DNA of 64,000 nt. Origin: Bordetella sp. FB-8 (GTDB lineage: Bacteria > Pseudomonadota > Gammaproteobacteria > Burkholderiales > Burkholderiaceae_B). The stretch is taken from assembly GCF_000382185.1 (NCBI RefSeq), contig NZ_KB907784.1, forward strand, positions 3,561,133 through 3,625,132. The letters are read 5' to 3'. The notes beneath the pieces are model-generated. The model was not told the DNA's origin, searched no databases, and was given only the letters and a program-made list of their open reading frames with translations. The translations under genes and the position numbers were made by a program. Positions 14,397-64,000 of the stretch are shown here, one piece after another (the stretch's first letter is position 1; each line of letters opens with the position of its first letter).

Positions 14397-14398
14397 CT

Positions 14399-49964: not shown

Positions 49965-50094
49965 GATTACCCTTTTATTCAGCCTGAAACGGCATGGCCA
50001 CGAGTTTGTGCCAGCCCTGAATGTAGCTGAGCAGCGCCGTACTGATTGATTGCGCACGCGGCCCTAAAACCGGCTATTTTGATCAATTGCGGGT

Positions 50095-50100
50095 TACAAT
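50095..50100 (+). promoter_or_regulatory. -10 element of ssrA
   Basis: TACAAT, 8 bases before the predicted 5' end of mature tmRNA; no good -35 match is seen 17 bases upstream. Confidence 0.4.
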
Positions 50101-50108
50101 AGCTCTGC

Positions 50109-50530
50109 GGGGCCGATCCGGATTCGACGTGGATCAAGAAACAACTCAGCGCATGCCGAGCACCAGTAAGCTCGTAAAACCACTGGAAACAAACTAAACG
50201 CCAACGACGAGCGTTTCGCTCTCGCCGCGTAAGCGGTGAGCCGCTGCACCGATCTGTCCTTGGGTCGGGCGGAGAGGGGGCAACCCTTCTAAGGATTCTT
50301 GCATAGGGCCATAACCCCCGAAGCAAGCTCATCCTGAACCGCAGCAGCGTCATTTACAGGGAATCGGTTTGCGCTGGGGTCACACGGCGCCCGCTTAAAT
50401 TACGTGAATCGCCCTGGTCCGGCCTGTCGTCCGGCTAAGTCCAGGGTTAAATCCAAATAGGCCGACTACGCATGTAGAACTGATTGTGGACGGTTTACGG
50501 ACGCGGGTTCAATTCCCGCCGGCTCCACCA
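50109..50530 (+). ncRNA. ssrA: Transfer-messenger RNA (tmRNA)
   Basis: One-piece tmRNA of about 422 bases. The 5' GGGGCCG pairs with the 3' CGGCTCC before CCA to form a tRNA-Ala-like acceptor stem with one G-U pair; GGTTCAATTCC near the end is the T-arm. The tag frame at 50200-50232 reads ANDERFALAA then TAA, a beta-proteobacterial proteolysis tag. With SmpB it frees stalled ribosomes. The 3' end of ssrA is a classic integration site and everything downstream here is accessory DNA. Confidence 0.97.
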
Positions 50531-50546
50531 AAAACCCGTATCAATG

Positions 50547-50561
50547 AGTCTAAATTAGACT
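50547..50561. repeat. Palindrome AGTCTAA-A-TTAGACT after ssrA
   Basis: An exact 7-base inverted repeat with a 1-base centre, 17 bases beyond the tmRNA CCA; the half-site AGTCTAAA recurs at 50609-50616. Could be arm sites of a lost integrase or an old attachment boundary; this is inference. Confidence 0.35.
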
Positions 50562-50599
50562 AAAAAGCCTTAGAGATCAAAGCTCTAAGGCTTTTTTTT
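50562..50599 (+). terminator. Terminator of ssrA
   Basis: AGCCTTAGAG / CTCTAAGGCT 10-base stem, 7-base loop, A-run before and T8 after; strong and possibly bidirectional. Confidence 0.92.
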
Positions 50600-50623
50600 G
50601 CCCTAAACAGTCTAAATCAGTAT

Positions 50624-50883
50624 TGAACCGCCCCGGGTTTTGCGGAGGCTCTAACTCTTGAGAGAATAGAGCCATGAGCAAGAGCAATACGAGCAAGTTT
50701 TCCCCGGAAGTGCGTGAACGGGCGGTGCGCCTGGTGCAGGAGCACCGTGCGGACTACCCATCGCTGTGGCTGGCGGTCGAGTCGATCGCGCCGAAGATTG
50801 GCTGTTCATCGCAGACCCTGCTGACCTGGGTCAAGCGCCAGGAGATCGACAATGGCAAGCGCGAAGGGCTGACAAGCAGCGAA
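50624..50883 (+). mobile_element. Left remnant of an IS3-type insertion sequence
   Basis: Begins with TGAACCGCCCCGGG, an IS3-family-like terminal repeat, followed by the start of a transposase orfA. The element stops abruptly at 50883 where another IS starts; the rest is not found on the far side, so it was lost. Confidence 0.7.
50674..50883 (+). pseudogene. Truncated IS3-type transposase OrfA
   Basis: About 70 codons of an OrfA-type helix-turn-helix protein ([20 protein letters not shown], then [20 protein letters not shown]). The frame is closed by the TGA that is the first triplet of the next IS (50884). Nonfunctional. Confidence 0.85.
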
Positions 50884-50946
50884 TGACCCTGCCTCGATTT
50901 CACGTACATCAAGAAGTTGTTAACTTCAAAGGTACGGAGAATCGAG

Positions 50947-51267
50947 ATGAAAGAAGGCAGGCTGCCCAAGAGGCAGTACACAGAGCAATTCAAGGCAGAG
51001 GCTGTCAGGCTCGCGGCCTCGGTGGGCGGGCACGAAGCGGCACGGCGCCTTGGCGTGCCGGTGGCCACGCTGGGAAACTGGTCAAGGCGGAGCGTTGCCT
51101 CGGCCAGCACCGGCGTAGGGGCAGTCGCGGGGGAGGCGCCTACCCGTCGCCCCATCAGTGAGTTGGAGGCGGAGAACAGCCGCCTGCGCCGGGAATTGGC
51201 CGAAGCGAAGCTGGATGTAGAAATCCTGCGAAAAGCGACGGCGTACTTCGCCAAAGTGTCGCGATGA
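50947..51267 (+). CDS. IS3-family transposase OrfA
   Basis: A 106-residue protein with an N-terminal helix-turn-helix (KRQYTEQFKAEAVRLAASVG, GGHEAARRLGVPVATLGNWS) and a C-terminal leucine-zipper-like coiled coil (SELEAENSRLRRELAEAKLD) as typical of IS3 OrfA. Its stop overlaps the OrfB start (ATGA). Confidence 0.92.
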   Translation: MKEGRLPKRQYTEQFKAEAVRLAASVGGHEAARRLGVPVATLGNWSRRSVASASTGVGAVAGEAPTRRPISELEAENSRLRRELAEAKLDVEILRKATAYFAKVSR

Positions 51268-52127
51268 AGTACGCCTGGATCGACAAACATCGCGACCAGT
51301 ACCCTGTTAGCCGGTTGTGCCGCGTGCTGGGTGTCTCGCGCAGCGGCTACTGCCAATGGCGCGTGCGCCCGCCCAGCAAGAGGGCGTTGGCCAATCAGGC
51401 CCTGGATGCCAAGGTGGCCGCTCTCCACCAGGCCAGCCGCCGCAGCTACGGACGTCCTCGAATCGTGCAAAGACTGCGCCAGCAGGGCCAGATCGTCGGT
51501 GCCGAGCGGGTTCGCAAAAGCCTGCGGCGCCAAGGGCTGCGGCCGGTGTACAGAAGGCCGTTCGTGGTGACTACCGACTCGGCCCACCGCCTGCCGGTGG
51601 CGCCGAACCTGCTGGATCGACGTTTCGATGGCTGGCAGCCCGACCAAGCCTGGGTGGCCGACATCACGTATGTGCCCACCGGCGAGGGCTGGCTGTATCT
51701 TGCGGCAGTGATGGACTTGGCAGGCCGGCGGATCGTGGGGTGGTCGATGTCCGAGGCCATCGATGCGGGCTTGGTATGCGCCGCGCTGCAATCGGCCTGG
51801 TGGCAACGCAAGCCCGAAAAGGGTCTGCTCGTACATACCGATCGCGGATCGCAGTATGCCAGCGGGCGCTACCGAGCGTTGGCGGCCGGCCTGGGCATCA
51901 CGATGTCTATGAGCCGCAGGGCCAATGCTTGGGACAACGCACCGATGGAGAGTTTCTTCAAGACGCTGAAGGTCGAACGTGTCTACCAGGTACGCTACGA
52001 AACGCGGGCGCAGGCGCGGCTAGACATCGTCGACTGGATCGAGGGCTGGTACAACCGCCAGCGCCTGCACTCGGCCAACGGCTTCCTCGCCCCTGTCGCA
52101 TGGGAGAATGCCCGTTCGGCTGCATGA
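51264..52127 (+). CDS. IS3-family transposase OrfB (DDE integrase domain)
   Basis: A 287-residue integrase-core protein. DDE residues are seen in DQAWVADITYVPTGEGWLY (Asp), VHTDRGSQYAS (Asp) and MESFFKTLKVERVY (Glu), intact. N-terminal region GVSRSGYCQWRVRPPSKRAL is HTH_21-like. Appears functional; it can be made as OrfAB fusion by a -1 shift or by coupling. Confidence 0.94.
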   Translation: MKYAWIDKHRDQYPVSRLCRVLGVSRSGYCQWRVRPPSKRALANQALDAKVAALHQASRRSYGRPRIVQRLRQQGQIVGAERVRKSLRRQGLRPVYRRPFVVTTDSAHRLPVAPNLLDRRFDGWQPDQAWVADITYVPTGEGWLYLAAVMDLAGRRIVGWSMSEAIDAGLVCAALQSAWWQRKPEKGLLVHTDRGSQYASGRYRALAAGLGITMSMSRRANAWDNAPMESFFKTLKVERVYQVRYETRAQARLDIVDWIEGWYNRQRLHSANGFLAPVAWENARSAA

Positions 52128-52157
52128 CTTGATGTACGTGGAAACGAGACAGGGTCA

Positions 52158-52417
52158 CCCAAGATGTATTCGCGCAGCTCCATGTCGTCGCCCAATAGTT
52201 CGCGGGCTTGCTCCCATGCATCCTGCACTTGCGGCGTTGCTGGATTGCGGCCAATGAAGTCTCGGCCAATCTGAGGAAATTTTCCCAGCAAATCCGGCAG
52301 CACGTCATAGGCTTGATTGAGCAGACGCTGCGCGGCGGCATATGCGCCATTTTCAATCAGATACGCCAGTTCTTCATCAACCCTACGCTCGTAGGCTTCG
52401 CGCAGCACAACACGCAT
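52158..52417 (-). pseudogene. RelE/ParE-like toxin gene truncated by the IS
   Basis: The first about 86 codons are native: MRVVLREAYERRVDEELAYL, LLNQAYDVLPDLLGKFPQIG and ELREYILGD resemble ParE/RelE-superfamily toxins, lying just 3 bases after an antitoxin stop. The last beta strands are replaced by IS sequence (frame runs on to 51995). Probably inactive, which would free the antitoxin from selection. Confidence 0.8.
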
Positions 52418-52420
52418 GAA

Positions 52421-52756
52421 CTACACCCGCGCCTTGTGCGCGGCGATGGCTGCGTCCAGTTTTTTTTGACCGCGCGCCTTGGCCTGCTCCGGGTCGATGC
52501 CGGGCTTGCCCGCACGAATGTCCCGCATGCCACCAATCGCATCGTGCAATAGGCTTGCATGAAAACCGGCCTGGGCCTGTTTTTCACGCTCTAGCTCGTG
52601 GTAATAGTCGAGCTTGCGTGCATCCACCAAGGCCACATAGCTTTCGCCATTGCGCGTAATGATTTTTTCGCTACCAGCGCGAACCTCATCCGCCAAGGCC
52701 GTCAGGTTGGTGCGCGCTTTGTTGAAAGGAACGATGTCCTGGGAAGTGATGGGCAT
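52421..52756 (-). CDS. Phd/YefM-type antitoxin
   Basis: A 111-residue protein: MPITSQDIVPFNKARTNLTA, LADEVRAGSEKIITRNGESY and VALVDARKLDYYHELE are typical of the Phd/YefM fold; the C-terminal part is charged and would bind the toxin. Precedes the truncated toxin gene in the usual antitoxin-toxin order. Start 52756 chosen as the conserved MPITSQD; a palindromic operator lies upstream. Confidence 0.88.
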   Translation of the reverse strand: MPITSQDIVPFNKARTNLTALADEVRAGSEKIITRNGESYVALVDARKLDYYHELEREKQAQAGFHASLLHDAIGGMRDIRAGKPGIDPEQAKARGQKKLDAAIAAHKARV

Positions 52757-52774
52757 GACCATCTCCAAGCAGAA

Positions 52775-52808
52775 ATATATACAAAAACGTTAACGTATTT
52801 GTATATAT
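52775..52808 (-). promoter_or_regulatory. 34-base near-perfect palindrome, antitoxin operator
   Basis: Two 17-base arms (ATATATACAAAAACGTT and AACGTATTTGTATATAT) with one mismatch and no spacer, 19 bases upstream of the antitoxin start. TATATA/TTGTAT elements inside it fit a promoter under autorepression by the antitoxin. Confidence 0.75.
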
Positions 52809-52907
52809 AAATCAAGATGCCATGTGCAACTGACTCGGTACGTCGTGCCTCTTCGTAGACATCGTGTTTCCAGGTCAGATTGCGGAAGTTTCCTACCAAC
52901 GAACCGT

Positions 52908-53570
52908 TTACACAAAATTCTGCACACACTCCCAGTCCTGGTGAAAGTCTGTCTCAGCGAGGACTTGCTCGAGCTGGTAATCGCCAACGCGCCGGCTCTG
53001 CTGCGGCGGTCGGATGCCGATGGTCTCCAGAGCCCGGTTCAGCGACGTCGCCAGATCACGGTCAATTGGCTGCGCGCTGGCAACCGGGGCTGTTTCGTCA
53101 AACAGCTTGTTTGCTATGTCGGCCCGCAGATGGACATTTTCCCGGGCAGGACCTGCGAGCTTGCACCGTTGCGCCGGGTCGGACAGGAAGACCAGGGACT
53201 GGATGTAGGGCGTGCGACGTTTCTGAACAGTCAACTGCTTTCGCAGCAGCGATGCGAGCTTTTTTGCCTTGCGGTTCGTGAGCAGCAAGGGGTTGTCGTC
53301 AAAGTATTCGCGCGCTCCGTCTCGCCAGATCCAGGTGCGGGAGTCGCCACTGACCTCCCCGGGGCGGCTCTTGATTTCAACGAGGAAGATGCCGTAACGG
53401 GAAACGATCAGCAAATCGACTTCATTAATGCTCCCGTCATCGGCAACAAACTCGAAGTTGCTGTAGGCGCGAAAAGGCTCGCGGTTTGGCAGCGCGCGCC
53501 GCACAAAGTCGAGAGCGTCCTGCTCCCACGGAAATTGGGATGGCGAAATCGTCTTCCAGCGCCCACTCAT
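52908..53570 (-). pseudogene. NERD-domain protein, truncated at the start of a kinase domain
   Basis: A 220-residue frame. Residues about 20-150 form a NERD nuclease-related domain: SNFEFVADDGSINEVDLLIV (Glu-Val-Asp), then FLVEIKSRPGEVSGD with the ExK pair. The region RRVGDYQLEQVLAETDFHQD matches the start of the Ser/Thr-kinase domain in NERD-kinase proteins of defence islands (PglW-like), but the frame ends after QDWECVQNFV. Complete relatives are much longer. GGAGG 6 bases before ATG 53570 supports the start. Probably a deletion remnant. Confidence 0.75.
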
Positions 53571-53657
53571 CGGGGACCTCCGTCCGTGGTGACGCAGCAA
53601 GTCCGATGATGATCGGATGCACCCGACCTTCCTCTATTGTTTGGTGGAGGATTCATA

Positions 53658-54572
53658 TCAGTCGCAGTCCTGTTCTGGCTCAACGGGCTCTGGGCTTTCG
53701 TAGCCGGGTGCCAGTACAGCGCTTCGGACGCCATACAGCGCCAGGTGATTTCTGAGCCAGAGCCTGTGCTCAGGGCTGTTCAATTTATGGGTCGGTGAGC
53801 AGTCCACGCTCCATTTACGCAAGATGTAACCGGCCATGGCAGCGCGCAGCTTCATCTTCAACATGCCCCGCTCCATACCGTAGTCCATCTCGGAGATTTC
53901 AGGGTGCGGCTGGTCAGGGTGTGGAACCAGATCCAGCTCCAGAATTCGGGTCCACTGGATGTCCTGGTCATTGACTTCGTGAGAAGCCACCGGCATCCCC
54001 TTGAGCACCATTGGCTGCTTGATGCGGGTGATGACGAAATCTCTGAACTCTTGAGACTTGCGATCGAAGGCACGGACATGCCAGCGCAGGCCGTTGTCGA
54101 TCAGGGCGAAAGGAACGATCTCGCGATCCGACCGCCCGCTAGAGATTGAGTGGTACTCGATGCCAAGCGGACACCCCTGATGGATCGCCCGGGTCACCCT
54201 TGCCAGCACATCCAGATCCGGATGCGTAAGCCGTGACGGGCTTTCGCTGGCCACCCATGCCTTGAGCCGCATCGGCTCGCCGTCTCCAAAGCCCTGCGTC
54301 AGCCAAGACAGCGCCCGCTCCGCAGGAAAGTCGAAGATTGGGCGGAAGTCGGGCCCCAGGACGTAGGCCTTGCCTTTTGGGTCGTAGTCGATGTTGCCCG
54401 GAGATAATTCCTTGTAGAGCGCCAAATCCCGGGTTGCCGCTGCGGACTGGATGCCAAACCGCGCAACCAGGTCCTGCCGACGGATCTCCCCCACGAAGCG
54501 CACACGCAGCTCAATGAACGCGAGCCGGTCGCGCTGAGGCTGGGTTAGTTCTGCAAGTTGGTCTTTGGGCAT
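53658..54572 (-). CDS. WYL-domain transcriptional regulator
   Basis: A 304-residue protein: N-terminal winged helix (DRLAFIELRVRFVGEIRRQD, LVARFGIQSAAATRDLALYK), then a WYL domain with GIEYHSISSGRSDREIVPFA and the WHVRAFD motif in GLRWHVRAFDRKSQEFRDFV, then a C-terminal WCX-like region. WYL regulators of this form (BrxR/CapW-like) control defence operons by binding a ligand or nucleic acid. Divergent from jetA with about 157 bases between starts, so likely the regulator of the Wadjet operon. ATG 54572 begins the conserved part; no ideal ribosome-binding site. Confidence 0.88.
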   Translation of the reverse strand: MPKDQLAELTQPQRDRLAFIELRVRFVGEIRRQDLVARFGIQSAAATRDLALYKELSPGNIDYDPKGKAYVLGPDFRPIFDFPAERALSWLTQGFGDGEPMRLKAWVASESPSRLTHPDLDVLARVTRAIHQGCPLGIEYHSISSGRSDREIVPFALIDNGLRWHVRAFDRKSQEFRDFVITRIKQPMVLKGMPVASHEVNDQDIQWTRILELDLVPHPDQPHPEISEMDYGMERGMLKMKLRAAMAGYILRKWSVDCSPTHKLNSPEHRLWLRNHLALYGVRSAVLAPGYESPEPVEPEQDCD

Positions 54573-54729
54573 TCCTGAGTGCTCTATCGGGTTAACGAAT
54601 GCTTGTGCGGATTGTTGTATTAAGTATATAAGCCGCTTTAAAATGTGACAATACAATGTTTTTAATTCTTGTATACGTCGTACTATGATTACCGTATGAT
54701 GGGCAATGCCCGCACTTTGGAGCATGGGA
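54573..54729. promoter_or_regulatory. WYL-jetA divergent control region
   Basis: AT-rich spacer with inverted repeat TTGTATT (54615-54621) / AATACAA (54650-54656), a further TTGTAT (54669-54674), and TATGAT boxes at 54684-54689 and 54695-54700 as candidate -10 elements for jetA. Candidate operator for the WYL protein. Confidence 0.45.
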
Positions 54730-56190
54730 GTGAAAGCAGACAAAGCCATCGCAACCTACCGGCGCATGCGGGCGCAGCCGCCGTGGCGTCTGCTTGCCTC
54801 GACTACCGGGCCTACCGTCATTGGCCTGCTTCAATCTCATCTGTATGAGGGCGAGCGAAGCCTCCCTGCCTCCATTTTTCACGAACGCATCGCAAGAGAT
54901 CTGGAAGAGCTGCGCGCCCAAGGTGAAGACTTTCCTCAAACGGCGCAGGCGTATGTCGCCAGCTGGCTCGCCGATGGGTTCCTGGAGCGACGCTTCCCGG
55001 CTGGGGCTTCAGAGGAGGAATATGAACTCTCCACGGCGGCCGTCGAAGCCATTCGGTTTGTATCTGGACTGGCACAGCCGCACTCCGCTGCAACCGAAAG
55101 TCGCCTGACGCTCGTCATTGAAGCCTTGGCCCGACTTGCCGAGGACACCGACACTGACAAATTCCGCCGCATCGACCGGCTCATGGCCGAGCAAGCCCGC
55201 ATCGACAAGGAGATTGACGCTATCCAGAAGGGGCAGATGCGCGTGCTGCCTCATACAATGGCGCTCGAGCGCACGCGGGAGATCATCATGCTGGCCGACG
55301 ATCTGGCCGGTGATTTCCGCCGTGTCCGCGATCAGTTCGACCAGCTCAATCGCGATCTCCGTGAACGCATCATGGACAACGATGGCAATCGTGGAGATGT
55401 GCTGGATTCGCTGTTCGCCGGAATAGACCTGATTTCAGAGAGCGACGCCGGAAGGACTTTCTCCGCTTTCTGGCGATTGCTTACGGACCCAGAACAGGCG
55501 GCCACGCTCGACCAGGCGCTCGATAACGTCATGTCGCGGGAGTTCGTGGGGCAGCTCGAAGCCAAGGAAAGACGATTCCTACTGCGGCTAACGCGCACCC
55601 TTCTTGAGCAGGGCGGCATGGTTCACGAGGTGCTCCAGACTTTCGCGCGCAGCCTGAAGCACTTCGTCCAGAGTCGTGAATACCTCGAGCAACGCCGACT
55701 CAACCACCTACTGAAAGACGCCCAGCGCGCAGCACTGGCCCTGAAGAACGAGGTCAGGGCCACAGAAACCCTCCAGTACACGCTTGAGCTCACGAGCAGT
55801 CGATTGCGCTCCTTGTCCCAATGGGTGCTGCACGACCCATCACTACAAGCATTACCCGGGCAGATGGCAGAAGGGGATGCGCCGCCAATCGACCTGGAGT
55901 CTGTGAGCGAACTGGTCGCACAGTCGGAAATCGACTTCCGAACACTGAAGGCCAACGTGTTGGCAGTCCTGGATCAGCGCTCTCAGGCATCGATTGCCGA
56001 CGTGCTGGAGCAGTTCCCCGCTGCACAGGGGTTGGGCAGCGTCGTCGGCCTGCTTGCGTTGGGCAGTCGGCATGGGTTCAAGGCCGCCCACAGTGAAACC
56101 GTAGGCTGGGTTGGAGGCGACGACGAGCGTCGTAGCGCCCGAATTCCAAAGATCTTCTTTTTGAGGGAGCGGGCCAATGAACTGGTCTGA
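54730..56190 (+). CDS. jetA: Wadjet system protein JetA (MksF/MukF-like kleisin, DUF3375)
   Basis: A 486-residue kleisin-type subunit. KADKAIATYRRMRAQPPWRL and SERSLPASIFHERI-like GERSLPASIFHERIARDLEE are DUF3375 marks; next a winged-helix region, long helices (LAEDTDTDKFRRIDRLMAEQ onward) and a C-terminal winged helix, as for MukF/MksF. It bridges the JetC heads. GTG 54730 has GGAG 7 bases upstream; ATGs at 54706 and 54724 are alternatives with weaker sites. The gene overlaps jetB by 14 bases. Confidence 0.93.
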   Translation: MKADKAIATYRRMRAQPPWRLLASTTGPTVIGLLQSHLYEGERSLPASIFHERIARDLEELRAQGEDFPQTAQAYVASWLADGFLERRFPAGASEEEYELSTAAVEAIRFVSGLAQPHSAATESRLTLVIEALARLAEDTDTDKFRRIDRLMAEQARIDKEIDAIQKGQMRVLPHTMALERTREIIMLADDLAGDFRRVRDQFDQLNRDLRERIMDNDGNRGDVLDSLFAGIDLISESDAGRTFSAFWRLLTDPEQAATLDQALDNVMSREFVGQLEAKERRFLLRLTRTLLEQGGMVHEVLQTFARSLKHFVQSREYLEQRRLNHLLKDAQRAALALKNEVRATETLQYTLELTSSRLRSLSQWVLHDPSLQALPGQMAEGDAPPIDLESVSELVAQSEIDFRTLKANVLAVLDQRSQASIADVLEQFPAAQGLGSVVGLLALGSRHGFKAAHSETVGWVGGDDERRSARIPKIFFLRERANELV

Positions 56191-56884
56191 GAACGACGAA
56201 GCGGCAATGCCAGCCGAAGCACAAGCACCAGATGCTGCTCAGGCACCCGCCAACACCCTGTTCATGGGCGACACCGGCGAGTTGCCGCTGGATACCCGGC
56301 GCGCCCTGGTGCAGCTACTGGCAGGGCCATCGCTCGACAGACGTCGACATCCAAAACTCTGGCCGATCTTGGTACGAGACGAAGCGGTGATCCGTCGGCG
56401 CCTTGCCGAGCTGTTTCTCGAACTGGTTATCGACAGAGACGTACAAGTGGCTTTCACGCGCCAGGCAGATACCGGCGACCTTGAGGTGCCTCTCCTGTTG
56501 CGTCGCGCCCAGCTTACGTTCATTGACTCCATTCTGCTGCTTCACCTTCGCCAACGACTGACCCAGGCGGACTCGCAGGGCGACCGTGCCGTGGTGTCGA
56601 CAGACGAGATCACAGAGTTTCTCTCCCTCTACGAGCGCGCCGCCAATACCGACCGTGCAGGGTTCGTGAAACGAGTTCACGCCTCCATTGAGAAGATTAA
56701 GAAGCACAGCATCCTGCAGAAGATTCGCTCGAGCGAGGATCGCTTCGAGATTTCGCCGACGCTGAAGCTCCTCTTCTCGGCGGAGGAAATACAAGCGCTG
56801 ACGCACCTGTATCAGCGCATGGCGGCCGGAGAGACACCAGCGCAATTGGTTCAGACTGAAGCTGATGAGGAGGCCGACCAATGA
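56177..56884 (+). CDS. jetB: Wadjet system protein JetB (MksE/MukE-like, DUF4194)
   Basis: A 235-residue KITE-type subunit of the DUF4194 family. After an acidic tail it has DTRRALVQLLAGPSLDRRRH, VIRRRLAELFLELVIDRDVQ, a winged-helix with LLLRRAQLTFIDSILLLHLR, then TDEITEFLSLYERAANTDRA and KKHSILQKIRSSEDRFEISP, as in MukE/MksE. It binds JetA. Overlaps jetC by 4 bases (ATGA). Confidence 0.93.
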   Translation: MNWSENDEAAMPAEAQAPDAAQAPANTLFMGDTGELPLDTRRALVQLLAGPSLDRRRHPKLWPILVRDEAVIRRRLAELFLELVIDRDVQVAFTRQADTGDLEVPLLLRRAQLTFIDSILLLHLRQRLTQADSQGDRAVVSTDEITEFLSLYERAANTDRAGFVKRVHASIEKIKKHSILQKIRSSEDRFEISPTLKLLFSAEEIQALTHLYQRMAAGETPAQLVQTEADEEADQ

Positions 56885-59800
56885 TCCCGAAACCCCAAAC
56901 CGCCTCTTTGTTTGCCCGCGAGCAGTTCCGGATGACCCGCCTGCAGGTTTACAACTGGGGGACTTTCTCCGGCCTGCACGACGTGCCGATCAGCGAGCGA
57001 GGCTTTCTGTTTGTAGGTCGATCCGGCGCTGGGAAGTCAACGCTTCTCGATGCATTTTCGGCATTGCTGACGCCACCTCGCTGGATCGATTTCAACGCGG
57101 CTGCGCGCGAGGCGGACCGCAGTGGCCGTGACCGGAACCTCGTCACCTACATACGTGGTGCGTGGGCTGAACAGAAGGATGGGGAGTCGGGAGAAATCGC
57201 AACTCGCTACCTGCGCGCGGGGACGACCTGGTCTGCCTTGGCGCTGACCTACCAGAATGCGTTGGGTCAGTCTGTGGTGCTGGTTCAGGTGTTCTGGCTG
57301 CGAGGCAATGCGAACGGCAACGCCGACGTCAAACGCCACCACCTCGTCATGGAGCGGGCCTTTGACCTGCGCGAGCTCGAGGACTTCGGCCAATCCAACT
57401 TCGACATCCGTAAGCTCAAGCAGTCCTTCCCGGAGGCATTCGCCCGCGACGAATTTCGTCCCTATTGCGAACGGTTCTGTCGCCTGCTTGGCATCGAGAG
57501 CGAAATGGCGCTGCGTTTGCTGCACAAAACCCAGTCGGCCAAGAATCTCGGCGACCTCAATACCTTCCTGCGCGACTTCATGCTCGACAAGCCCGAGACC
57601 TTCGAGGTGGCGGATCGCTTGGTCAGCGAATTCGGCGAACTCAGTGCGGCCCACCAGGCAGTCGTCACGGCCCGCGAGCAGGTTCAAACGCTCGCGCCAG
57701 CGCGGGACCAGCACATCCGTAGGGACTCGTTGATGCTGCAGCGCAATGGCTTGGATGAGCTTCGACTGGGCGTGGACGGCTACCGAGAGACCCGCCGCAT
57801 TGATCTGCTCAAGCAGCATGTCGAATCCCTGCAGGTGCAAGCGAGTGGCACTGAAGGCGAAGTCAGTCGACGTCAAAGCACTCTGGATAACCATTCCACG
57901 ACCTTGCGCGATCTGGAGCGACAGCACCGTGAAGCAGGCGGTGATCAGATCGAGCAATGGGAAGCCGAGAAATTGGGGCTGGAGGGTCAGCGCACAGATC
58001 GCCTGCGCAAACGCGGTCAGGCCGAAGATGCGTGCAAGAAGCTGGGCTGGAGTCTCCCGGATTCGCCTCAATCTTTCGCTGAGCTGTTGGGCAGCGCGCG
58101 GCAGGAAGTCGAAAACTGGGAGCAGCGCAGCAACGATAGCCGCGCCGAGCAGTTCCGCCTGGACAGAGAAAAGAAGGATGCCGAGACCGCGTTTTCGCAA
58201 GCACTGAAAGAGGTGCAGGCACTTCAGCGCCAGCCATCGAACATTCCGGCGGACATGCTGGAAATGCGTCGAGACATCGCTGCCGCCATCGGAATCTCGG
58301 AGTCGGCGCTTCCCTTTGTTGGCGAACTCGTCGAGGTGAAGCCTGACGAGGCCGAATGGCAGGGAGCCATCGAGCGCGTACTGCACGGATTTGCGCTCTC
58401 ACTCCTGGTAGACGAACGCCAGTATTCGGCATTGGCCAATCACATCAACACCACCCACCTTGGGCAGCGCTTGGTGTATTACCGGACTGGCCGCCCGGAG
58501 ACGTGGCAGGCCAAGCCCATTGGTGCCAATTCGCTCGTCCTCAAGCTGAACGTCAAGGAGGGGACGTATGCCGATTGGCTCCAGGCCGAACTACGGCAAC
58601 GCTTCGATTACGCGTGCGTCGACTCTATTCAGTCCTTCAGGAGCGCAGATCGAGCCATCACCCGTGAAGGCCAGGTCAAGCACAGCAAAACCCGGCACGA
58701 AAAAGACGACCGTAGAAGTGTCGGCGACCGACGAAACTGGGTGCTCGGATTCGATAACCGGGAGAAGCTCGAGCTCTTTCAAGCTCAGGCGCAGGAACTG
58801 GCTGACACCATTTCTCGCCTCGGCGGGGAGATCGACAAACTCTCCGACCAAGACAAGAATCGTGCGACCCGAGCGATACAGTGCCAAACCCTGGTGAATC
58901 TCCAGTGGCAAGAAATAGATCTGCTCCCATTGCTGGATCGCATTTCCACCATTGAGCGACAGATCCGCGAAGCGCGGGAAGGCAATACAGCCCTACTGCA
59001 AATCAGTCAACGGATCGACAAGCAAAAGGACCTGGTTGAGCAGGCTGACAAGGATCTCCGCGAAGCCAAGGTCGCGCATGACTCAGTTCTCAAGCAGATC
59101 AAAGACAGCACGCAAAAGCTCGAATCCCTCCTTCAAGATGCTTCCAGAGTTTCATTGACCCCCCACCAGATCAAGGGGCTCGACGAACGATTCACCCAGC
59201 AGTCAGACGTGATCAGGCTCGAAAGCCTCGACAAGGTAACAACTGCTGTTGAGAGAGGGCTCAACACAGAAATCAGTGAGATCAAAGATAAGATCGCCGA
59301 GTGCGAGAAAGAAATAGAAGCACGCTTTGCCGATTTCAAACGGCAATGGCCGATGGACGCGGGCGATATGGACACGAGCCTTGCCAGCGCGCCAGACTTC
59401 TTCGCCAAACTGGTTCGGCTGGAGACGGATGGTCTGCCCGCCTATGAGCAGCGGTTCTTTGAATTGCTGCAGAACCAAAGTCACCAGAATCTGGCGGCGC
59501 TTTCCACCTACCTGAACGATGCGCGTAAGGCGATCCTGGAACGGATGGATCTGGTCAACGACAGCCTTGGCCAGGTGCCCTTCAACCAGAGCGCCAATCA
59601 ACGCACTTATCTCCACATCGACGCCAGTGACCGGCAGCTTGTCGACGTCAAGGAGTTCAAGCAGGAGATCCAGCAGGCGCTGAGCCATGCATGGACGGAG
59701 GATCGCGAGTTTGCCGAGGCACGGTTTCTGGCCTTGCGACGACTTGTTGATCGACTCGCCAGTCAGGACCCCGAGCAAAAGCGCTGGCGTGAGACTGTGC

Positions 59801-60255
59801 TCGATGTTCGACAGCATGTCGAGTTCATCGGACGGGAAATCGATGAAAGCGGTGTCGAGATCGAGATCTACCGCAGCGGAGCAGGCAAGTCTGGCGGCCA
59901 ACGGCAGAAGCTAGCCACCACGTGCTTGGCCGCAGCCCTGCGATATCAACTGGGCGGGAACGACCACGGCGTGCCGATGTACGCGCCCGTCGTGCTGGAT
60001 GAAGCCTTCGACAAGGCGGATAATGAGTTCACCGCTTTGGCGATGAACATCTTTACCAATTTCGGATTCCAGATGGTGGTCGCTACGCCGTTGAAGTCAG
60101 TCATGACCCTTGAACCATTCATCGGTGGTGCCTGTTTCGTGGATATCAGCGATCGGCGAGTCTCAGGCGTCCTGCTGATCGAGTACGACGGTGATCGTCA
60201 GCGGTTGAAGCTGCCAGAGCACGCACGAGAGGAGGCTAGCGTTGAAGCTTCCTGA
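56881..60255 (+). CDS. jetC: Wadjet system protein JetC (SMC/MukB-like ATPase)
   Basis: An 1124-residue SMC-like ATPase. N-terminal head: MTRLQVYNWGTFSGLHDVPI and Walker A GRSGAGKS at residues 46-53. Two long coiled-coil arms flank a central hinge (about residues 470-590, around LPFVGELVEVKPDEAEWQGA). C-terminal head: signature SGGQRQKLATTCLAAALRY (1004 on) and Walker B VVLDEAFDKAD with Asp1040-Glu1041. All ATPase residues are present. With JetA/JetB it would form the loop-extruding complex that senses circular plasmid DNA. Confidence 0.95.
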   Translation: MIPKPQTASLFAREQFRMTRLQVYNWGTFSGLHDVPISERGFLFVGRSGAGKSTLLDAFSALLTPPRWIDFNAAAREADRSGRDRNLVTYIRGAWAEQKDGESGEIATRYLRAGTTWSALALTYQNALGQSVVLVQVFWLRGNANGNADVKRHHLVMERAFDLRELEDFGQSNFDIRKLKQSFPEAFARDEFRPYCERFCRLLGIESEMALRLLHKTQSAKNLGDLNTFLRDFMLDKPETFEVADRLVSEFGELSAAHQAVVTAREQVQTLAPARDQHIRRDSLMLQRNGLDELRLGVDGYRETRRIDLLKQHVESLQVQASGTEGEVSRRQSTLDNHSTTLRDLERQHREAGGDQIEQWEAEKLGLEGQRTDRLRKRGQAEDACKKLGWSLPDSPQSFAELLGSARQEVENWEQRSNDSRAEQFRLDREKKDAETAFSQALKEVQALQRQPSNIPADMLEMRRDIAAAIGISESALPFVGELVEVKPDEAEWQGAIERVLHGFALSLLVDERQYSALANHINTTHLGQRLVYYRTGRPETWQAKPIGANSLVLKLNVKEGTYADWLQAELRQRFDYACVDSIQSFRSADRAITREGQVKHSKTRHEKDDRRSVGDRRNWVLGFDNREKLELFQAQAQELADTISRLGGEIDKLSDQDKNRATRAIQCQTLVNLQWQEIDLLPLLDRISTIERQIREAREGNTALLQISQRIDKQKDLVEQADKDLREAKVAHDSVLKQIKDSTQKLESLLQDASRVSLTPHQIKGLDERFTQQSDVIRLESLDKVTTAVERGLNTEISEIKDKIAECEKEIEARFADFKRQWPMDAGDMDTSLASAPDFFAKLVRLETDGLPAYEQRFFELLQNQSHQNLAALSTYLNDARKAILERMDLVNDSLGQVPFNQSANQRTYLHIDASDRQLVDVKEFKQEIQQALSHAWTEDREFAEARFLALRRLVDRLASQDPEQKRWRETVLDVRQHVEFIGREIDESGVEIEIYRSGAGKSGGQRQKLATTCLAAALRYQLGGNDHGVPMYAPVVLDEAFDKADNEFTALAMNIFTNFGFQMVVATPLKSVMTLEPFIGGACFVDISDRRVSGVLLIEYDGDRQRLKLPEHAREEASVEAS

Positions 60256-61405
60256 AGATGTTCGGCAGCTTCTTGCCCGTCGCTTTCAAAGCAAGCACCG
60301 CGAATGGTTGATCGGTGATCCGGGCGAGGTCCAATGGCCGCTGGAAGTTCCGCTCGGCATTCCGACGGAGCAGGCTGCACTGAGACAAGTCGACGGCGTT
60401 CGTGCTTGGGTGAGCGCATGGCAAGGCTGGCAAGGGGTCGGCACACTATCTTGGTGTGAGCGGCGATGGAAAGCGCTTGGCGTTCAGCGACTGCCAGAGA
60501 AACTGGCGTTACGAGGCCCTGAAGATGTTGCCCTGTGGATCGGTGCATCCGCACGGTGGGTTCGCGCCCTGTCTCGGTATCAGACGCTCACTGCTCTCTG
60601 GCCGGTACTTGCGCAGCAGTTGCCGAGATATTTTGATGTCCTCGCTGACTACCGCGATGCCGATTTCCATCGACTGGCAGAGATGTTGGATTGGATCAAT
60701 CGCAATCCGAAATCGAATCTCTACCCACGACAAATTCCGGTTGCCGGTGCCGACAGCAAATGGCTGGATTCTCGAAAGGGCATCATCTCTGACTTGATTG
60801 CAACGCTCCAGGGTGACCCAACAGGAGAGCGCGACTTCTTCTGGCGCTGCGGCTTGAGGGCACAGCCGCAGTTATTGCGCATGCGCGTTCTAGACCCGGA
60901 GTTAAGAACCCGTTTGGGCGGTCTTGGCGATATCTCCGCTCCCTGTGAGGAGTTCGCAAGCATTGGTGTACGACCAAAGCATGTCTTCGTTGTTGAGAAC
61001 CTTCAAACTGGCCTTGCTTTTGATGATCTACCAGGGGCAGTTGTGATCATGCGACTAGGCTACGCGGTTGACGTTTTGGGACAGCTTCCATGGCTACAAC
61101 AGGCGCAATGTATCTACTGGGGTGACATCGATACTCATGGCTTTGCCATTCTTAATCGAGCCAGAACATACATCCCAAGCCTGAAGGCCGTGCTGATGGA
61201 TGAGTCAACGCTGATGAGTCATCGCGATTTATGGGTCGAGGAGAAAGACCAGCACTCTTCCACAGAACTCCCACTACTCACCAATACCGAACAAAGGCTC
61301 TACCAGTCGATTAAAGGAAATGCCTGGGACCAACAAGTCCGCCTCGAACAGGAGCGGATACGCTGGGATGTGGCGTGGAATGCCATACAGGAAAGTATTC
61401 GATGA
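60242..61405 (+). CDS. jetD: Wadjet system protein JetD (toprim nuclease, DUF3322/DUF2220)
   Basis: A 387-residue protein: N-terminal DUF3322 part (EWLIGDPGEVQWPLEVPLGI, WCERRWKALGVQRLPEKLAL) and a C-terminal toprim/topo VI-like domain (DUF2220) with Glu252 in HVFVVENLQTGLAF and Asp295/Asp297 in IYWGDIDTHGFAILNRAR. These acidic residues chelate the catalytic metal for plasmid cleavage. Start is TTG 60242, overlapping jetC, with AGGAGG 6 bases upstream. Intact, so the operon looks active. Confidence 0.95.
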   Translation: MKLPEDVRQLLARRFQSKHREWLIGDPGEVQWPLEVPLGIPTEQAALRQVDGVRAWVSAWQGWQGVGTLSWCERRWKALGVQRLPEKLALRGPEDVALWIGASARWVRALSRYQTLTALWPVLAQQLPRYFDVLADYRDADFHRLAEMLDWINRNPKSNLYPRQIPVAGADSKWLDSRKGIISDLIATLQGDPTGERDFFWRCGLRAQPQLLRMRVLDPELRTRLGGLGDISAPCEEFASIGVRPKHVFVVENLQTGLAFDDLPGAVVIMRLGYAVDVLGQLPWLQQAQCIYWGDIDTHGFAILNRARTYIPSLKAVLMDESTLMSHRDLWVEEKDQHSSTELPLLTNTEQRLYQSIKGNAWDQQVRLEQERIRWDVAWNAIQESIR

Positions 61406-61431
61406 TCCAGGATCAGGGAGGTCAGTGGTGA

Positions 61432-61937
61432 GTGGAAATCGATGGGACCAGTCGGGTGTACCCCACAAGGGATGGCACTGCGTTGACGTGGTCGACCTGC
61501 GGGCCGACGGTCGCGTCCGCAGGCGAGACCGACTCCGCGACCTGCCAAATGTGCGGCAACGAGAAGATCCGCTACGTCCACATCATGGAGCATCCAGATC
61601 TGGACGAGAGCTTCGACGTAGGGTGCGTCTGCGCCGAGAAGATGAGCGGCGACTACGAGGGGCCGAAACGGCGTGAGGCTAAGTTGCGCAACCGCGCAGC
61701 ACGCCGGACCCGATGGCTGCAGCGCAAGTGGCGGGTGTCCCCAAGGGGAACAGCTTTCTGAACGTCGATGGGCACAACCTCGGCGTCCACATGAACAAGT
61801 TTAAGCGCTGGGGCTACCGGATCGGCAGCCGGTTCAGCACCAAGACCTACACAACCAAGGACGAAGCCAAGCTGGCCCTTTTCGATGACTTCTGGGCCGC
61901 GACCCAGGATGACGACCGGCTGTGGGCTTCGGACTGA
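61432..61937 (+). pseudogene. Frameshifted zinc-ribbon protein downstream of jetD
   Basis: Two overlapping frames look like one protein of about 168 residues. The first (61432-61761) has a Cys-rich CQMCGNEKIRYVHIMEH and DVGCVCAEKM, then a basic RREAKLRNRAARRTRWLQRK; it runs off at RVSPRGTAF. The other frame continues GVPKGNSFLNVDGHNLGVHM and YRIGSRFSTKTYTTKDEAKL to 61937. One base is missing around 61737-61745 (TCCCC/AAGGGG), either mutation, sequencing error or, less likely, recoding. Starts 27 bases after jetD, so possibly co-transcribed. Function unknown. Confidence 0.7.
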
Positions 61938-61983
61938 TTCCAGCAGGCTGGCGGACCAGTCGTAGACCAGGACACATCAAACA

Positions 61984-62139
61984 ATGAAAACAGACTTGAT
62001 CGAAAAGTACGAGCCGATTCTTTGTGGGCTTATGCCTCCGGTAGTGCGCGATCTGCGCCTGTTGATGGATGCAAGCGGCGACGTGAAGATCTATTACGCG
62101 CCATTCGAGTACATCAACCCCAGTGCGCGGATCGTTCTA
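61984..62139 (+). pseudogene. 5' fragment of a gene cut by the IS5-type element
   Basis: 52 native codons (MKTDLIEKYEPILCGLMPPV, then DVKIYYAPFEYINPSARIVL) before the IS end at 62140; the frame runs into the IS to 62190. The YYAPFEYINPSARIVL region recalls uracil-DNA-glycosylase-like hypothetical proteins, from memory and weakly. The rest of the gene is not found beyond the IS. Confidence 0.6.
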
Positions 62140-62966
62140 GGGCCTGTTAACACAAAACACGAAGACCATCGACAACCAGCACGAAGCTGAGAAAGCCGAG
62201 GAACATCGCATCGAGTTTTTCGAAGCGAGAAAATATCCTCCGAAACCCTTTTAAGCGGCGAAACAAGCGCTCGACTTCGTTGCGGCGCTTGTACATCTCT
62301 CGGTCGTATTCCCAGGGTTCGATGCGGGTGCTGATCGGTGGGACCACTGGGATAAAACCGAGGTCCAGAGCGAGCTGACGCGTCTGGTTGCCTTCATAGG
62401 CCCGGTCCATCAGCAAGTGAATGGGACGACTCGTTGCGCCCAGGCTCGCGAGCAACCGCCTACCTTCTGGCGCATCGTGCGCCTGCCCGGGGGACAAGCC
62501 AAACGTTACGGCCGTTCGAGCATCCGCGGCAACCATATGAATCTTGGTGTTCCATCCGCCTCGGGACTTGCCGATAGCCTGGGGGCCGTTTTTTTTAGCG
62601 CACCTGTCCCATCGGGATGCACCTTGATGCTGGTGCTGTCCAGCGACACCGCCTCGATCTTGATGCGCACGACCTGCTCGCGCTGCAGTTGCTCGAACAT
62701 CTTGTCCAGTACACCCGACTGGGTCCAGCGACGCATGCGCGTGTAGATCGTGTGCCAGTTGCCGAACCGCTTTGGCAGGCCCCGCCACTTGCAGCCATGT
62801 TCTGCAACGTACAGCATCGCGTTGACCACTTGCAAATTGGTCATGCTGACGTTGCCTCGCTGCTTGGGCAGACAATGTTCGACAAGGGCAAATTGCTCAG
62901 GTGTGATCTCCATGAACAACACTATCACGCATCCGAGGCATTAATTCAATTAGTGTTAACACGCCC
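62140..62966 (-). mobile_element. IS5-family insertion sequence (IS427-like)
   Basis: 827 bases with ends GGGCCTGTTAACAC and GGGCGTGTTAACAC as terminal repeats. CTA stands outside both ends, consistent with the CTAG target (TA duplication) of the IS427 group. Encodes one transposase made by a -1 frameshift. It separates two unrelated gene stumps. Confidence 0.92.
62147..62913 (-). CDS. IS5-family transposase (-1 ribosomal frameshift)
   Basis: First frame (62506-62913, 135 residues, MEITPEQFALVEHCLPKQRG) and second frame (to 62147) join at A8 on the coding strand (T8 at 62589-62596). DDE residues: AVSLDSTSIKVHPDG, LMDRAYEGNQTRQL and YKRRNEVERLFRRLKGFRRI. Typical IS427-type arrangement and probably functional. 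Confidence 0.9.
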
Positions 62967-63190
62967 TAGCCCGTGGTCTTACTTTCCCATCGGACAGGGA
63001 ACACATCGGTACGGCCGCGGAAGAGCCGTCGGAAGATAGCGACCTTCTCGTCGGTGGACAGTCTCGATGGCTCGACGGGCGGTGCGGACGGCTGCTGCTG
63101 TGCCCGCCATTCGATGCCGTGCGATTCGAGCAGCGCGATCAGCCGGCCGTTCTCCGCGCGCAGCGTGGTGAACTCATCACTGTCCGCCAT
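62967..63190 (-). pseudogene. TOTE conflict system primase/helicase protein, N-terminal fragment
   Basis: About 74 native codons: coiled-coil start MADSDEFTTLRAENGRLIAL, then RLSTDEKVAIFRRLFRGRTD and VFPVRWESKTTG, after which the IS begins. This is the N-terminal signature of archaeo-eukaryotic primase/DEAD-helicase proteins of TOTE conflict systems. The primase, helicase and nuclease domains are missing. It overlaps the upstream 182-residue gene by 14 bases. Confidence 0.75.
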
Positions 63191-63725
63191 CAAATCCATG
63201 CTCGACCAGCAGGTCGTCCATGTCGTCACCAACGCCATAACCCAAGTTGTGGCCGAGGCTTCGGACAGCAGCGAGGCGACCCAACAATGCGTACCTGCGT
63301 CCCTCGGGCAAAGCGTCGATCAATTTCAACGCCTGCCCGAACATACGCACCAGGGCGTCGAAGTAGCCCTCGTCCTGCGAACCGACATCGTTGCTAAAGC
63401 CCGCCGCCCGCTCGCAGAAAAATACCATCAGCTCGGCCAGGCTCTCCGGCTGACCGATGGCCTTCTTGTAATCCGCGATGGCCTTTTTGGCCTTCGCGAC
63501 CGAGGTGTCCTGATTCTTGAACACATCGGGCCAAAGCCAGCGGTCGATGGTTACCTTATACGGCTTCAGCACATCGTCGCCGAGCCCGAAGCGCGCGTGC
63601 AGGAACGCCTGGTTATCTTTGCTGGCGGCGTAGAGGTCCTGCAGCAGGCCGATCAAGCCCGAACGCTCGAAGTCGGCAAGCTTCTCCTTGACGTCGCTCC
63701 ACCCCGGCGCTTTCTTTGCAGCCAT
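63177..63725 (-). CDS. Hypothetical protein, TOTE-linked
   Basis: A 182-residue alpha-helical, intact protein: WSDVKEKLADFERSGLIGLL, LHARFGLGDDVLKPYKVTID, KAKKAIADYKKAIGQPESLA and MFGQALKLIDALPEGRRYAL. I recognise it only as a protein seen beside TOTE-type genes or other defence genes; no catalytic motif is evident. The ATG at 63725 lies 2 bases after the stop of the small frameshifted gene upstream. Confidence 0.75.
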   Translation of the reverse strand: MAAKKAPGWSDVKEKLADFERSGLIGLLQDLYAASKDNQAFLHARFGLGDDVLKPYKVTIDRWLWPDVFKNQDTSVAKAKKAIADYKKAIGQPESLAELMVFFCERAAGFSNDVGSQDEGYFDALVRMFGQALKLIDALPEGRRYALLGRLAAVRSLGHNLGYGVGDDMDDLLVEHGFDGGQ

Positions 63726-63727
63726 GC

Positions 63728-63879
63728 TCACGTGTTCTCCAGCTTCAGCAGTTCCTTGGCGGCATCCTCCCGCGCCAGAACGCGGCCTCGTTCTGCCCGA
63801 GCGAATGGCGGTAAAAATCGGCGTCAATCCAGCAACGCTGGGATGCCGTCAAAAATACCGTCAAAAAGTAGCGCAGCAT
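63728..63879 (-). pseudogene. Small frameshifted gene upstream of the 182-residue protein
   Basis: Starting with ATG 63879 the frame reads MLRYFLTVFLTASQRCWIDA, DFYRHSLGQNEAAFWR, then turns into an unrelated end (GRMPPRNC). A different frame continues REDAAKELLKLENT and stops 2 bases before the next ATG, the expected coupled end. The 152-base length is off by two, consistent with two extra bases (or one lost) near 63770. Function unknown. Confidence 0.5.
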
Positions 63880-64000
63880 TCTTCGCTGATCACTTCGAAA
63901 GGTTTTTTACTGCAACAAAAAATCCATATCTTTCAATAGCTTAGAGTTTTCGAGAAGCACCATTGATATCGTGCTCACGTACATCAAAAATCGATATAAA

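What the first reader, a model, noticed from the sequence alone, without database searches (positions are those of the whole stretch)
54573..61405. Complete type I Wadjet (jetABCD) operon with a divergent WYL regulator
Four overlapping genes encode DUF3375 kleisin, DUF4194 subunit, SMC-like ATPase with intact Walker A (residues 46-53), SGGQ signature and DEA Walker B, and a toprim nuclease with Glu252/Asp295/Asp297. Known from the family: Wadjet/Mks complexes recognise and cut circular plasmids. No frame breaks are seen, so the system is probably active. A WYL protein as its divergent controller is an inferred, little-described arrangement.
Basis: partly seen in the sequence, partly recalled or inferred. 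Interest (0 to 1): 0.85.

Follow-up and report, generated by a model that had tools for sequence, protein, structure and literature searches.

The report
Plasmid-cutting Wadjet beside a chimeric regulator
This is an intact copy of a known bacterial anti-plasmid system (Wadjet), and the regulator gene beside it is a natural hybrid whose two halves match relatives of two different defence systems, which suggests that this regulator gene can serve as a swap point between systems.

Summary
Window 54706-61405 encodes a complete, uninterrupted type I Wadjet operon, jetABCD. The divergent gene (53658-54572, minus) encodes a 304-aa BrxR/CapW-family regulator; best solved relative BrxR of E. fergusonii, 7qfz, E 1.1e-85. 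The operon alone is a new member of a known kind, and a divergent WYL regulator is already described for CBASS.

Its first ~400 bp, the intergenic region and jetA match Wadjet-linked loci best; its last ~500 bp and a truncated pglW (BREX) gene behind it match pglW-linked loci best. In 57 of 57 parent pairs no shuffle reached the observed switch, and the best breakpoint lies inside the gene. Among the 80 nearest relatives this regulator sits between exchangeable neighbours, Wadjet in 19. The 5'-half linkage is clear for 12 of those 19, not for the other 7, and not for non-Wadjet systems.

Best reading: a BrxR-type repressor controls Wadjet from a shared promoter region, and its gene was a recombination joint between two systems. 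Regulation is inferred.

The parts
54706..56190 (+). jetA (DUF3375, kleisin-type subunit), 494 aa
   Evidence: PADLOC JetA1 E 4.8e-205; Pfam DUF3375 3.8e-157
56177..56884 (+). jetB (DUF4194, MukE-like), 235 aa
   Evidence: PADLOC JetB1 E 4.5e-99
56881..60255 (+). jetC (SMC-like ATPase), 1124 aa
   Evidence: PADLOC JetC1 E 0; PDB JetC 8dk2 1.8e-78; Walker A, SGGQ and DEA motifs
60242..61405 (+). jetD (toprim nuclease), 387 aa, TTG start
   Evidence: PADLOC JetD1 E 3.7e-138; PDB MksG 8b7f 9.6e-37, JetD 7til 9.2e-10; E252, D295, D297
53658..54572 (-). BrxR/CapW-family wHTH-WYL regulator, 304 aa, chimeric gene
   Evidence: PDB 7qfz 1.1e-85; mosaic tests
54030..54354 (-). zone holding the inferred recombination breakpoint in the WYL gene (gene nt 219-543, 14 of 30 parent pairs put it at nt 408-438, about 54135-54165)
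   Evidence: triplet tests, 30 parent pairs and 57 parent pairs
54573..54705 (.). shared divergent intergenic region between WYL gene and jetA (133 bp)
   Evidence: the same 133-bp gap in 10 of the 19 jetA-adjacent loci among the 80 relatives; the others 130, 155, 112, 96 or -8, by first start codon; conserved blocks
54623..54651 (-). promoter-like site for the WYL gene, TTGTCA-17-TATACT
   Evidence: consensus scan, 10 of 12 matches, 0.4 sites expected by shuffles; the -10 block is highly conserved across loci
54685..54695 (.). position of a short conserved palindrome (consensus GTGGTTATCAC on the WYL strand), degraded in the window; overlaps a candidate jetA -10 (TATGAT, 54684-54689)
   Evidence: arms of 5 pair at >=80% in 50 of 80 aligned sequences; a second candidate near -28 reaches 45 of 80; the -10 candidate was read by eye and not found by the scan
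52908..53600 (-). 5' remnant of pglW (BREX kinase), truncated: about 215 of about 1405 codons remain
   Evidence: NCBIfam BREX_PglW, 1-224 of 1391; 206 of 214 residues identical to the start of the 1405-aa PglW in L049

Best explanation
A complete type I Wadjet operon (JetABCD) sits back to back with a BrxR/CapW-family regulator. By what is known of the family (recalled), JetABC is an SMC loop-extruding motor that recognises circular DNA and JetD cuts it. The regulator most likely binds the shared 133-bp region as a dimer, represses its own promoter and the jetA promoter, and is released by a ligand in its WYL domain. The locus formed by homologous recombination inside the regulator gene: the DNA-binding half, operator region and Wadjet came from a Wadjet-linked locus, and the sensor half with pglW behind it came from a BREX-linked locus. 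BREX was later lost except for the 5' end of pglW. Shown: gene identities, intact frames and motifs, the mosaic regulator gene, and the exchangeable neighbours in relatives. Inferred: repression, the ligand, the operator, the order of events, and present-day activity.
For: Wadjet. Regulator family: phmmer to BrxR 7qfz 1.1e-85, CapW 9c5g 7.8e-31, BrxR 7t8k 2.5e-22. Module: in 19 of the 80 nearest WYL relatives jetA is the first gene on the divergent side, with JetA 94-99% identical to the window. Chimera: over WYL nt 1-400 the 14 closest of 81 sequences are 11 jetA-adjacent loci plus L055 (jetA about 1.5 kb away), L081 (jetA fragment) and L062 (no jetA in the 2.3 kb held); over nt 421-885 the three pglW-linked loci are the top 3 of 81 (88.0, 85.2, 84.3%; next 77.2%). 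Triplet tests: 30 of 30 chosen parent pairs (10 of the 19 Wadjet-linked loci x 3) with no shuffle at the observed value (2000 shuffles each, 20000 for L052/L050; 117:13 informative sites left, 24:114 right), and 57 of 57 when all 19 are used (1000 shuffles each). JetA shows no such step: 91-100% per 50-aa bin after the first bin, which is 82-98%. Hinge: 29 upstream x downstream combinations among 58 loci with both sides classed; Wadjet occurs with 10 first-gene classes downstream, of which one is the window's own pglW remnant (set by hand), one a transposase, and two lead to the same BREX type. Precedent: capW divergent from CBASS, BrxR repression.
Against: No canonical BrxR operator (10-11 bp arms, 5-bp spacer) was found in the window's intergenic region. 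The short conserved palindrome there is degraded in the window. No expression or binding data. WYL is not a general Wadjet partner: 6 of 79 JetA loci. In 7 of the 19 jetA-adjacent relatives (L058, L060, L074, L077, L078, L088, L111) the 5' part of the WYL gene and the bin next to it are no closer to the window than in loci without Wadjet, and their left-hand ratios in the triplet test are weaker, such as 70:34. With the Wadjet class left out, same-upstream pairs are not more alike at the 5' end than at the 3' end, so the two-sided rule is not shown for all systems. Shuffles ignore relatedness. The best 80 of 150 relatives were held. No triplet control with a non-Wadjet 'parent' was run.
Confidence: 0.7

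Rival explanations
1. The WYL gene is a leftover of the lost BREX (pglW) system and has no role in Wadjet control; jetABCD runs from its own constitutive promoter.
For: pglW lies directly behind the WYL gene on the same strand, and full-length pglW follows WYL in L049 (in L050 and L051 the contig ends within 1.1-1.4 kb). 73 of 79 JetA loci have no WYL gene in the held flank, though 11 of the 79 hold under 900 bp upstream. The conserved palindrome is degraded in the window, and by eye the TATGAT -10 candidate is nearer the consensus than in relatives.
Against: The N-terminal DNA-binding half, the intergenic region and jetA come together from Wadjet-linked loci, and 4 of 4 loci with JetA over 93% identical that were found without the WYL gene, the window included, carry it divergent. 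The gene is open with no frame break.
Confidence: 0.2
2. The WYL protein activates rather than represses jetABCD, as other WYL regulators of the DNA damage response do.
For: WYL activators exist (PafBC, SiwR, DriD; starts of abstracts seen in the listing). No classical operator was found.
Against: The nearest studied relative, BrxR of E. fergusonii, is a repressor, and so, as recalled, is CapW.
Confidence: 0.12
3. The mosaic pattern in the WYL gene reflects uneven selection or chance, not recombination.
For: The 3' third of the gene is less conserved in general: 77.0% against 83.1% at the 5' third in pairs that share neither neighbour.
Against: The 3' half is most alike to pglW-linked loci and the 5' half most alike to Wadjet-linked loci, a reversal that a uniform gradient cannot give; 0 shuffles reached it in 57 of 57 pairs; the similarity carries on into the flanking gene on each side.
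Confidence: 0.03

Closest known systems
Type I Wadjet (JetABCD), as in PDB 8dk2, 8as8, 8q72, 7til
   Same: Four subunits, order, motifs and operon overlaps
   Different: Ordinary sequence divergence. JetD scores higher against MksG (8b7f) than against the solved JetD proteins. A BrxR-type regulator is attached, seen in 6 of 79 JetA loci.
BrxR of E. fergusonii (7qfz), PMC9122601
   Same: Same protein family over residues 6-292; adjacent to a defence system
   Different: There BrxR lies upstream of the BREX genes that it represses and has a defined inverted-repeat operator; here it is divergent from Wadjet, no such operator was found, and the gene is chimeric.
CapW of CBASS (7tb5, 7tb6, 9c5g), PMC9122588
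   Same: Divergent WYL regulator upstream of a defence operon, opposite strand
   Different: The system controlled is CBASS; more distant in sequence (E 7.8e-31 to 5.8e-27).
pglW-linked regulator loci L049, L050, L051
   Same: 3' half of the WYL gene and pglW 5' end
   Different: No JetA match in the held flanks; pglW is full length in L049.

Membership tests
Type I Wadjet | JetA, JetB, JetC and JetD of type 1 in one operon | tested here: met
   PADLOC type-1 models are the best hits for all four; overlapping genes
Type I Wadjet | JetC ATPase motifs (Walker A, signature, Walker B) | tested here: met
   GRSGAGKS at 46, SGGQ at 1004, DEA at 1040; four residues checked, the same in 20 of 20 relatives
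Type I Wadjet | JetD toprim acidic residues | tested here: met
   E252, D295, D297, the same in 20 of 20 relatives; aligned to MksG and JetD chains
Type I Wadjet | Cleaves circular plasmid DNA in the cell | not testable with these tools
   needs an experiment
BrxR/CapW-type WYL regulators | wHTH-WYL-C-terminal homology over the whole protein | tested here: met
   residues 6-292 of 304 aligned to 7qfz, E 1.1e-85
BrxR/CapW-type WYL regulators | Located beside a defence operon | tested here: met
   jetABCD divergent, pglW remnant behind
BrxR/CapW-type WYL regulators | Inverted-repeat operator upstream (not obligatory: inverted repeats found for 193 of 347 homologues in PMC9122601) | tested here: inconclusive
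   no long inverted repeat; a short conserved palindrome exists in the relatives but is degraded in the window
BrxR/CapW-type WYL regulators | Binds DNA and represses the adjacent operon | not testable with these tools
   needs an experiment
BREX (pglW type) | Full pglW and partner genes | tested here: not met
   only about the first 215 of 1405 codons of pglW remain; a Phd-type antitoxin gene and an IS follow

The most novel reading that the evidence does not exclude
A BrxR-type regulator gene with its two-way promoter region acts as a portable recombination joint: bacteria swap whole defence systems on either side of it by homologous recombination inside the gene. This yields chimeric regulators that keep the DNA-binding half with its operator and divergent system (here Wadjet) and exchange the sensor half with the co-directional system (BREX and others), so that two unrelated systems come under one switch.
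Probability: 0.4. Interest if true: 0.7.

Novelty: new variant of a known kind. Interest (0 to 1): 0.45.

Why it matters
Defence islands change content fast, but how whole multi-gene systems are swapped while staying under control is little understood (my own framing). A conserved regulator gene that doubles as the crossover point would explain both. The window is a clean recombinant, and the relatives give a natural series in which the idea can be tested. For Wadjet it offers a testable regulator: the listings of the searches made here (open-licence PMC papers, at most 20 listed per search) showed no paper on control of Wadjet by a WYL protein beyond the co-localisation in PMC9122601.

Tried and rejected
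Long inverted-repeat operator: searched in the window and across the aligned upstream regions of 80 sequences (arms 8-11 bp); nothing stood out. Short arms of 5-7 bp gave the palindrome used here and several candidates of similar score; I treat it as a lead only.

Integration into tmRNA: the last 25 bases of the tmRNA gene occur once in the genome with up to 3 mismatches, so no att duplicate was found and I do not claim an ssrA island boundary.

Plasmid carriage: megablast of 53650-61410 against 72,556 plasmid records gave no match. tblastn of the WYL protein gave 699 records, all under 60% identity.

A general rule that the 5' half of the WYL gene follows the upstream system and the 3' half the downstream system: strong with Wadjet loci included, but with the Wadjet class removed same-upstream pairs are more alike along the whole gene, and 7 of the 19 jetA-adjacent relatives do not share the window's 5' type. 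I dropped the general form of the claim.

WYL as a usual Wadjet partner: rejected, 6 of 79 JetA loci. Of 29 WYL loci held from the order sample 1 has jetA within the held flank of about 1.5 kb.

Rows dropped before counts: L029 and L030 (same contigs as L128 and L092, by equal contig length); also L047 and L071. Loci without a classed gene on both sides were left out of the pair tests: 58 of 82 used, 57 of 82. In one search the window's downstream class was set by hand to that of the pglW loci, because the automatic pick had taken an antisense frame. In one search I had picked 10 of the 19 jetA-adjacent loci; one search repeats the test with all 19. The 79 JetA loci are the best-scoring places taken: 20 stretches from the family search (22 of 200 genomes with JetC), 30 loci from the class search (39 of 369 genomes), 29 new loci from the order search (50 of 399 genomes). 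Pfam and PADLOC scans named representatives of neighbour classes, not every member.

Full report
What is there. Four overlapping genes at 54706-61405 (+) encode JetA, JetB, JetC and JetD. All four have PADLOC type-1 Wadjet models as best hits (E 4.8e-205, 4.5e-99, 0 and 3.7e-138) and matching Pfam domains. JetC matches solved JetC (8dk2, 1.8e-78), and JetD matches MksG (8b7f, 9.6e-37) and JetD (7til, 9.2e-10). JetD E252, D295 and D297 and JetC K52, S1004, Q1007 and E1041 are the same in 20 of 20 Wadjet-linked relatives.

The regulator. The divergent gene is 53658-54572 (-), 304 aa. The 363-aa ORF starts upstream of the ATG from which relatives align. phmmer gives BrxR of E. fergusonii (7qfz) at 1.1e-85 over residues 6-292, CapW (9c5g, 7tb6, 7tb5) at 7.8e-31 to 5.8e-27, and BrxR 7t8k at 2.5e-22. 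It is a BrxR/CapW-family protein and the only match found in its genome.

What lies behind it. On the same strand, 52908-53600 is a 5' remnant of pglW, the BREX kinase: 206 of 214 residues identical to the start of the 1405-residue PglW in L049. DNA similarity to the pglW loci ends at 52932. A Phd-type antitoxin gene and a transposase gene (rve domains; I take it as IS3-type) follow, then the tmRNA gene at 50109-50530. So a BREX system, or part of one, once stood there and is gone.

Relatives. A scan of genome contigs with the regulator found 150 relatives; the best 80 were kept, 78-90% identical. By their titles most are beta- or gammaproteobacteria; the exceptions are one Acidithiobacillus, three MAGs named only Pseudomonadota (L071, L086, L110) and one MAG named Propionibacterium (L122). 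In 19 of these 80 the first gene on the divergent side is jetA. L055 has jetA about 1.5 kb away, and L081 has only a jetA fragment. In three (L049-L051) pglW follows. The rest have other neighbours.

The chimera. Compared with Wadjet-linked loci such as L052-L054, the window is 94-97% identical in the three 100-bp bins inside jetA, 87-91% in the two bins next to the regulator's start and 92-98% over the first 400 bp of the regulator gene; it then falls to 61-84% for the rest of the gene and to background behind it. Compared with the pglW-linked loci the pattern is reversed: low on the jetA side (up to 74% in the bin next to the regulator), 72-86% in the first 400 bp of the gene, 79-93% in the rest, and 81-94% in the pglW bins. 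By closest match, nt 1-400 pair with Wadjet-linked loci (11 of the best 14 of 81 are jetA-adjacent; the others are L055, L081 and L062), and nt 421-885 pair with the three pglW loci, which are ranks 1-3 of 81. Triplet tests on 10 chosen Wadjet-linked x 3 pglW-linked parents gave no shuffle at the observed value in any of 30 pairs; the best single breakpoint falls at nt 219-543 in all 30 and at nt 408-438 in 14 of 30. With all 19 jetA-adjacent loci the result is the same in 57 of 57 pairs, breakpoint at nt 219-540. In protein terms nt 410 is about residue 137, inside the WYL domain (Pfam WYL covers residues 121-186 of the 304-aa protein, shifted by 59). The winged-helix half thus stayed with the operator region and Wadjet, and most of the sensor and the C-terminus came with pglW.

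A dissent within Wadjet. Twelve of the 19 jetA-adjacent relatives share the window's type of intergenic region and 5' regulator end to a greater or lesser degree (L128 least). In seven (L058, L060, L074, L077, L078, L088, L111) jetA is 94-98% like the window's overall, yet the bin next to the regulator is about 70% and the first bins of the gene are 80-91%, as in loci without Wadjet. There Wadjet is joined to another type of regulator 5' end, so the junction must lie nearer jetA. The 5' half and Wadjet therefore do not always travel together.

The joint. Neighbours of the relatives were clustered. Divergent side: Wadjet; LysR regulator; ADP-ribosylglycohydrolase; a patatin-like phospholipase that PADLOC calls Effector and that I take as CBASS (recalled); others. 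Co-directional side: PsyrT, SNF2 helicase (C3a139), BREX (BrxC of three models, PglW), Hhe/PDC-S37, DUF6079, type I methyltransferase, GmrSD, genes with weak to moderate Lamassu LmuB similarity, and in L065 a transposase first (representatives only). Among 58 loci with both sides classed there are 29 combinations, and Wadjet occurs with 10 first-gene classes downstream; one of the ten is the window's own remnant, one is the transposase, and two (L060 type and L111) lead to the same BREX type. Pairs sharing only the upstream class are more alike at the 5' third (89.1 against 80.7% at the 3' third); pairs sharing only the downstream class are nearly level (85.0 against 83.9%); pairs sharing neither stand at 83.1 and 77.0%. 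With one locus per combination, 0 of 300 label shuffles reached the difference in 20 of 20 draws. Against this: with Wadjet loci removed, same-upstream pairs are more alike along the whole gene, not at the 5' end only, and label shuffles ignore relatedness. I claim the joint firmly for the window, in part for Wadjet loci, and as a hypothesis for the rest.

How often is WYL a Wadjet partner? Of 79 JetA-bearing loci found through JetC or JetA (family, class and order samples; best places only), 6 carry a WYL gene divergent from jetA; 68 of the 79 had at least 900 bp of upstream sequence to look in. All 4 with JetA over 93% identical carry it, the window included. The other two are distant (L047, JetA 32%; L190, JetA 58%). 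So the pairing is the habit of one Wadjet clade and is seen now and then elsewhere. Of 29 regulator loci held from an order-wide sample, 1 has jetA beside it.

Control region. The gap is 133 bp, as in the window, in 10 of the 19 jetA-adjacent relatives. A sigma-70-like promoter for the regulator (TTGTCA-17-TATACT, 54651-54623) is found where 0.4 are expected by chance, and its -10 block is among the best conserved columns. On the jetA side a short palindrome (consensus GTGGTTATCAC) is conserved (50 of 80 sequences pair at 80% or more) and overlaps a candidate -10 that I read by eye. In the window it reads ACGGTAATCAT, which breaks the palindrome and gives a TATGAT hexamer on the jetA strand. 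If this is the operator, the window's Wadjet may be less repressed; this is inference. The long inverted repeat known for BrxR was not found.

Comparison with print. PMC9122601 (section 22 and passages read) reports BrxR homologues co-localised with many systems, Wadjet among them, 29 of 347 with systems on both sides within 50 kb, and calls the islands highly mosaic. PMC9122588 (passages) reports capW consistently upstream of CBASS on the opposite strand. PMC9122589 (passages) gives the Acinetobacter BrxR operator. I saw no report of recombination inside such a regulator gene, nor of Wadjet control by one, in the searches (listings; open-licence papers; no bioRxiv collection). That is not proof of absence.

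Host. Equal contig lengths tie two genomes of its family to Pusillimonas minor and a Lautropia mirabilis MAG, so it is a betaproteobacterium of that broad family (taxonomy recalled). None of the 10 same-genus genomes listed in the family sample has a JetC match, so the operon looks acquired.

Verdict. The Wadjet operon is a sound new member of a known kind. The regulator's family is known and its divergent placement has precedent. The chimeric regulator gene and its possible role as a joint between exchangeable systems are the part worth a second look.

Noticed in passing
60242-61405 and JetD of 20 Wadjet-linked loci: JetD has two allele types: the first 150 residues are 76-100% identical to the window in all 20, but the rest (nuclease half) is 43-78% identical per 50-aa bin in 11 and 70-100% in 9, while all keep the acidic residues. 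This looks like a second swap point, in the nuclease.
   Followed up: partly
56881-60255, JetC residues about 701-800: This segment of JetC is 58-72% identical to the window in 14 of 20 Wadjet-linked loci but 86-92% in L060, L074, L077, L078, L088 and L111, six of the nine loci that share the window's JetD allele.
   Followed up: no
51995-52768: A Phd-type antitoxin gene (52421-52768, minus) is followed by an open frame (51995-52417) that runs into an insertion sequence (50884-52157), so its partner gene is probably cut.
   Followed up: no
L002:7318-12717 (about 6.8-12.2 kb beyond the window's right end): A 1799-aa protein joins an AAA_11/AAA_12 helicase, MkoC-like (E 1.1e-138), to a Toprim and a bacterial DNA topoisomerase domain: a helicase-topoisomerase fusion near other defence genes.
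   Followed up: partly
L002:1963-5019 and 14025-14927: AbiEii (type IV toxin-antitoxin) with an unscanned neighbour that may be AbiEi, a TrbI conjugation gene and a tyrosine integrase-like gene that matches only part of its profile: parts of an integrated mobile element beside the window.
   Followed up: no
62147-62928, and L002:13073-13801: An insertion-sequence transposase (DDE_Tnp_1) in overlapping frames near the right end of the window; the same 242-aa frame appears again about 13.7 kb on, in the opposite direction.
   Followed up: no
50000-64000: GC falls from mostly 61-67% to 57-61% to the right of about 50000, where the tmRNA gene lies, in keeping with an acquired region.
   Followed up: no
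L095, L116, L066 and others: In 18 of 82 sequences compared the gene divergent from the regulator belongs to a LysR-type regulator class rather than a defence gene (Pfam run on one, the rest by clustering).
   Followed up: no
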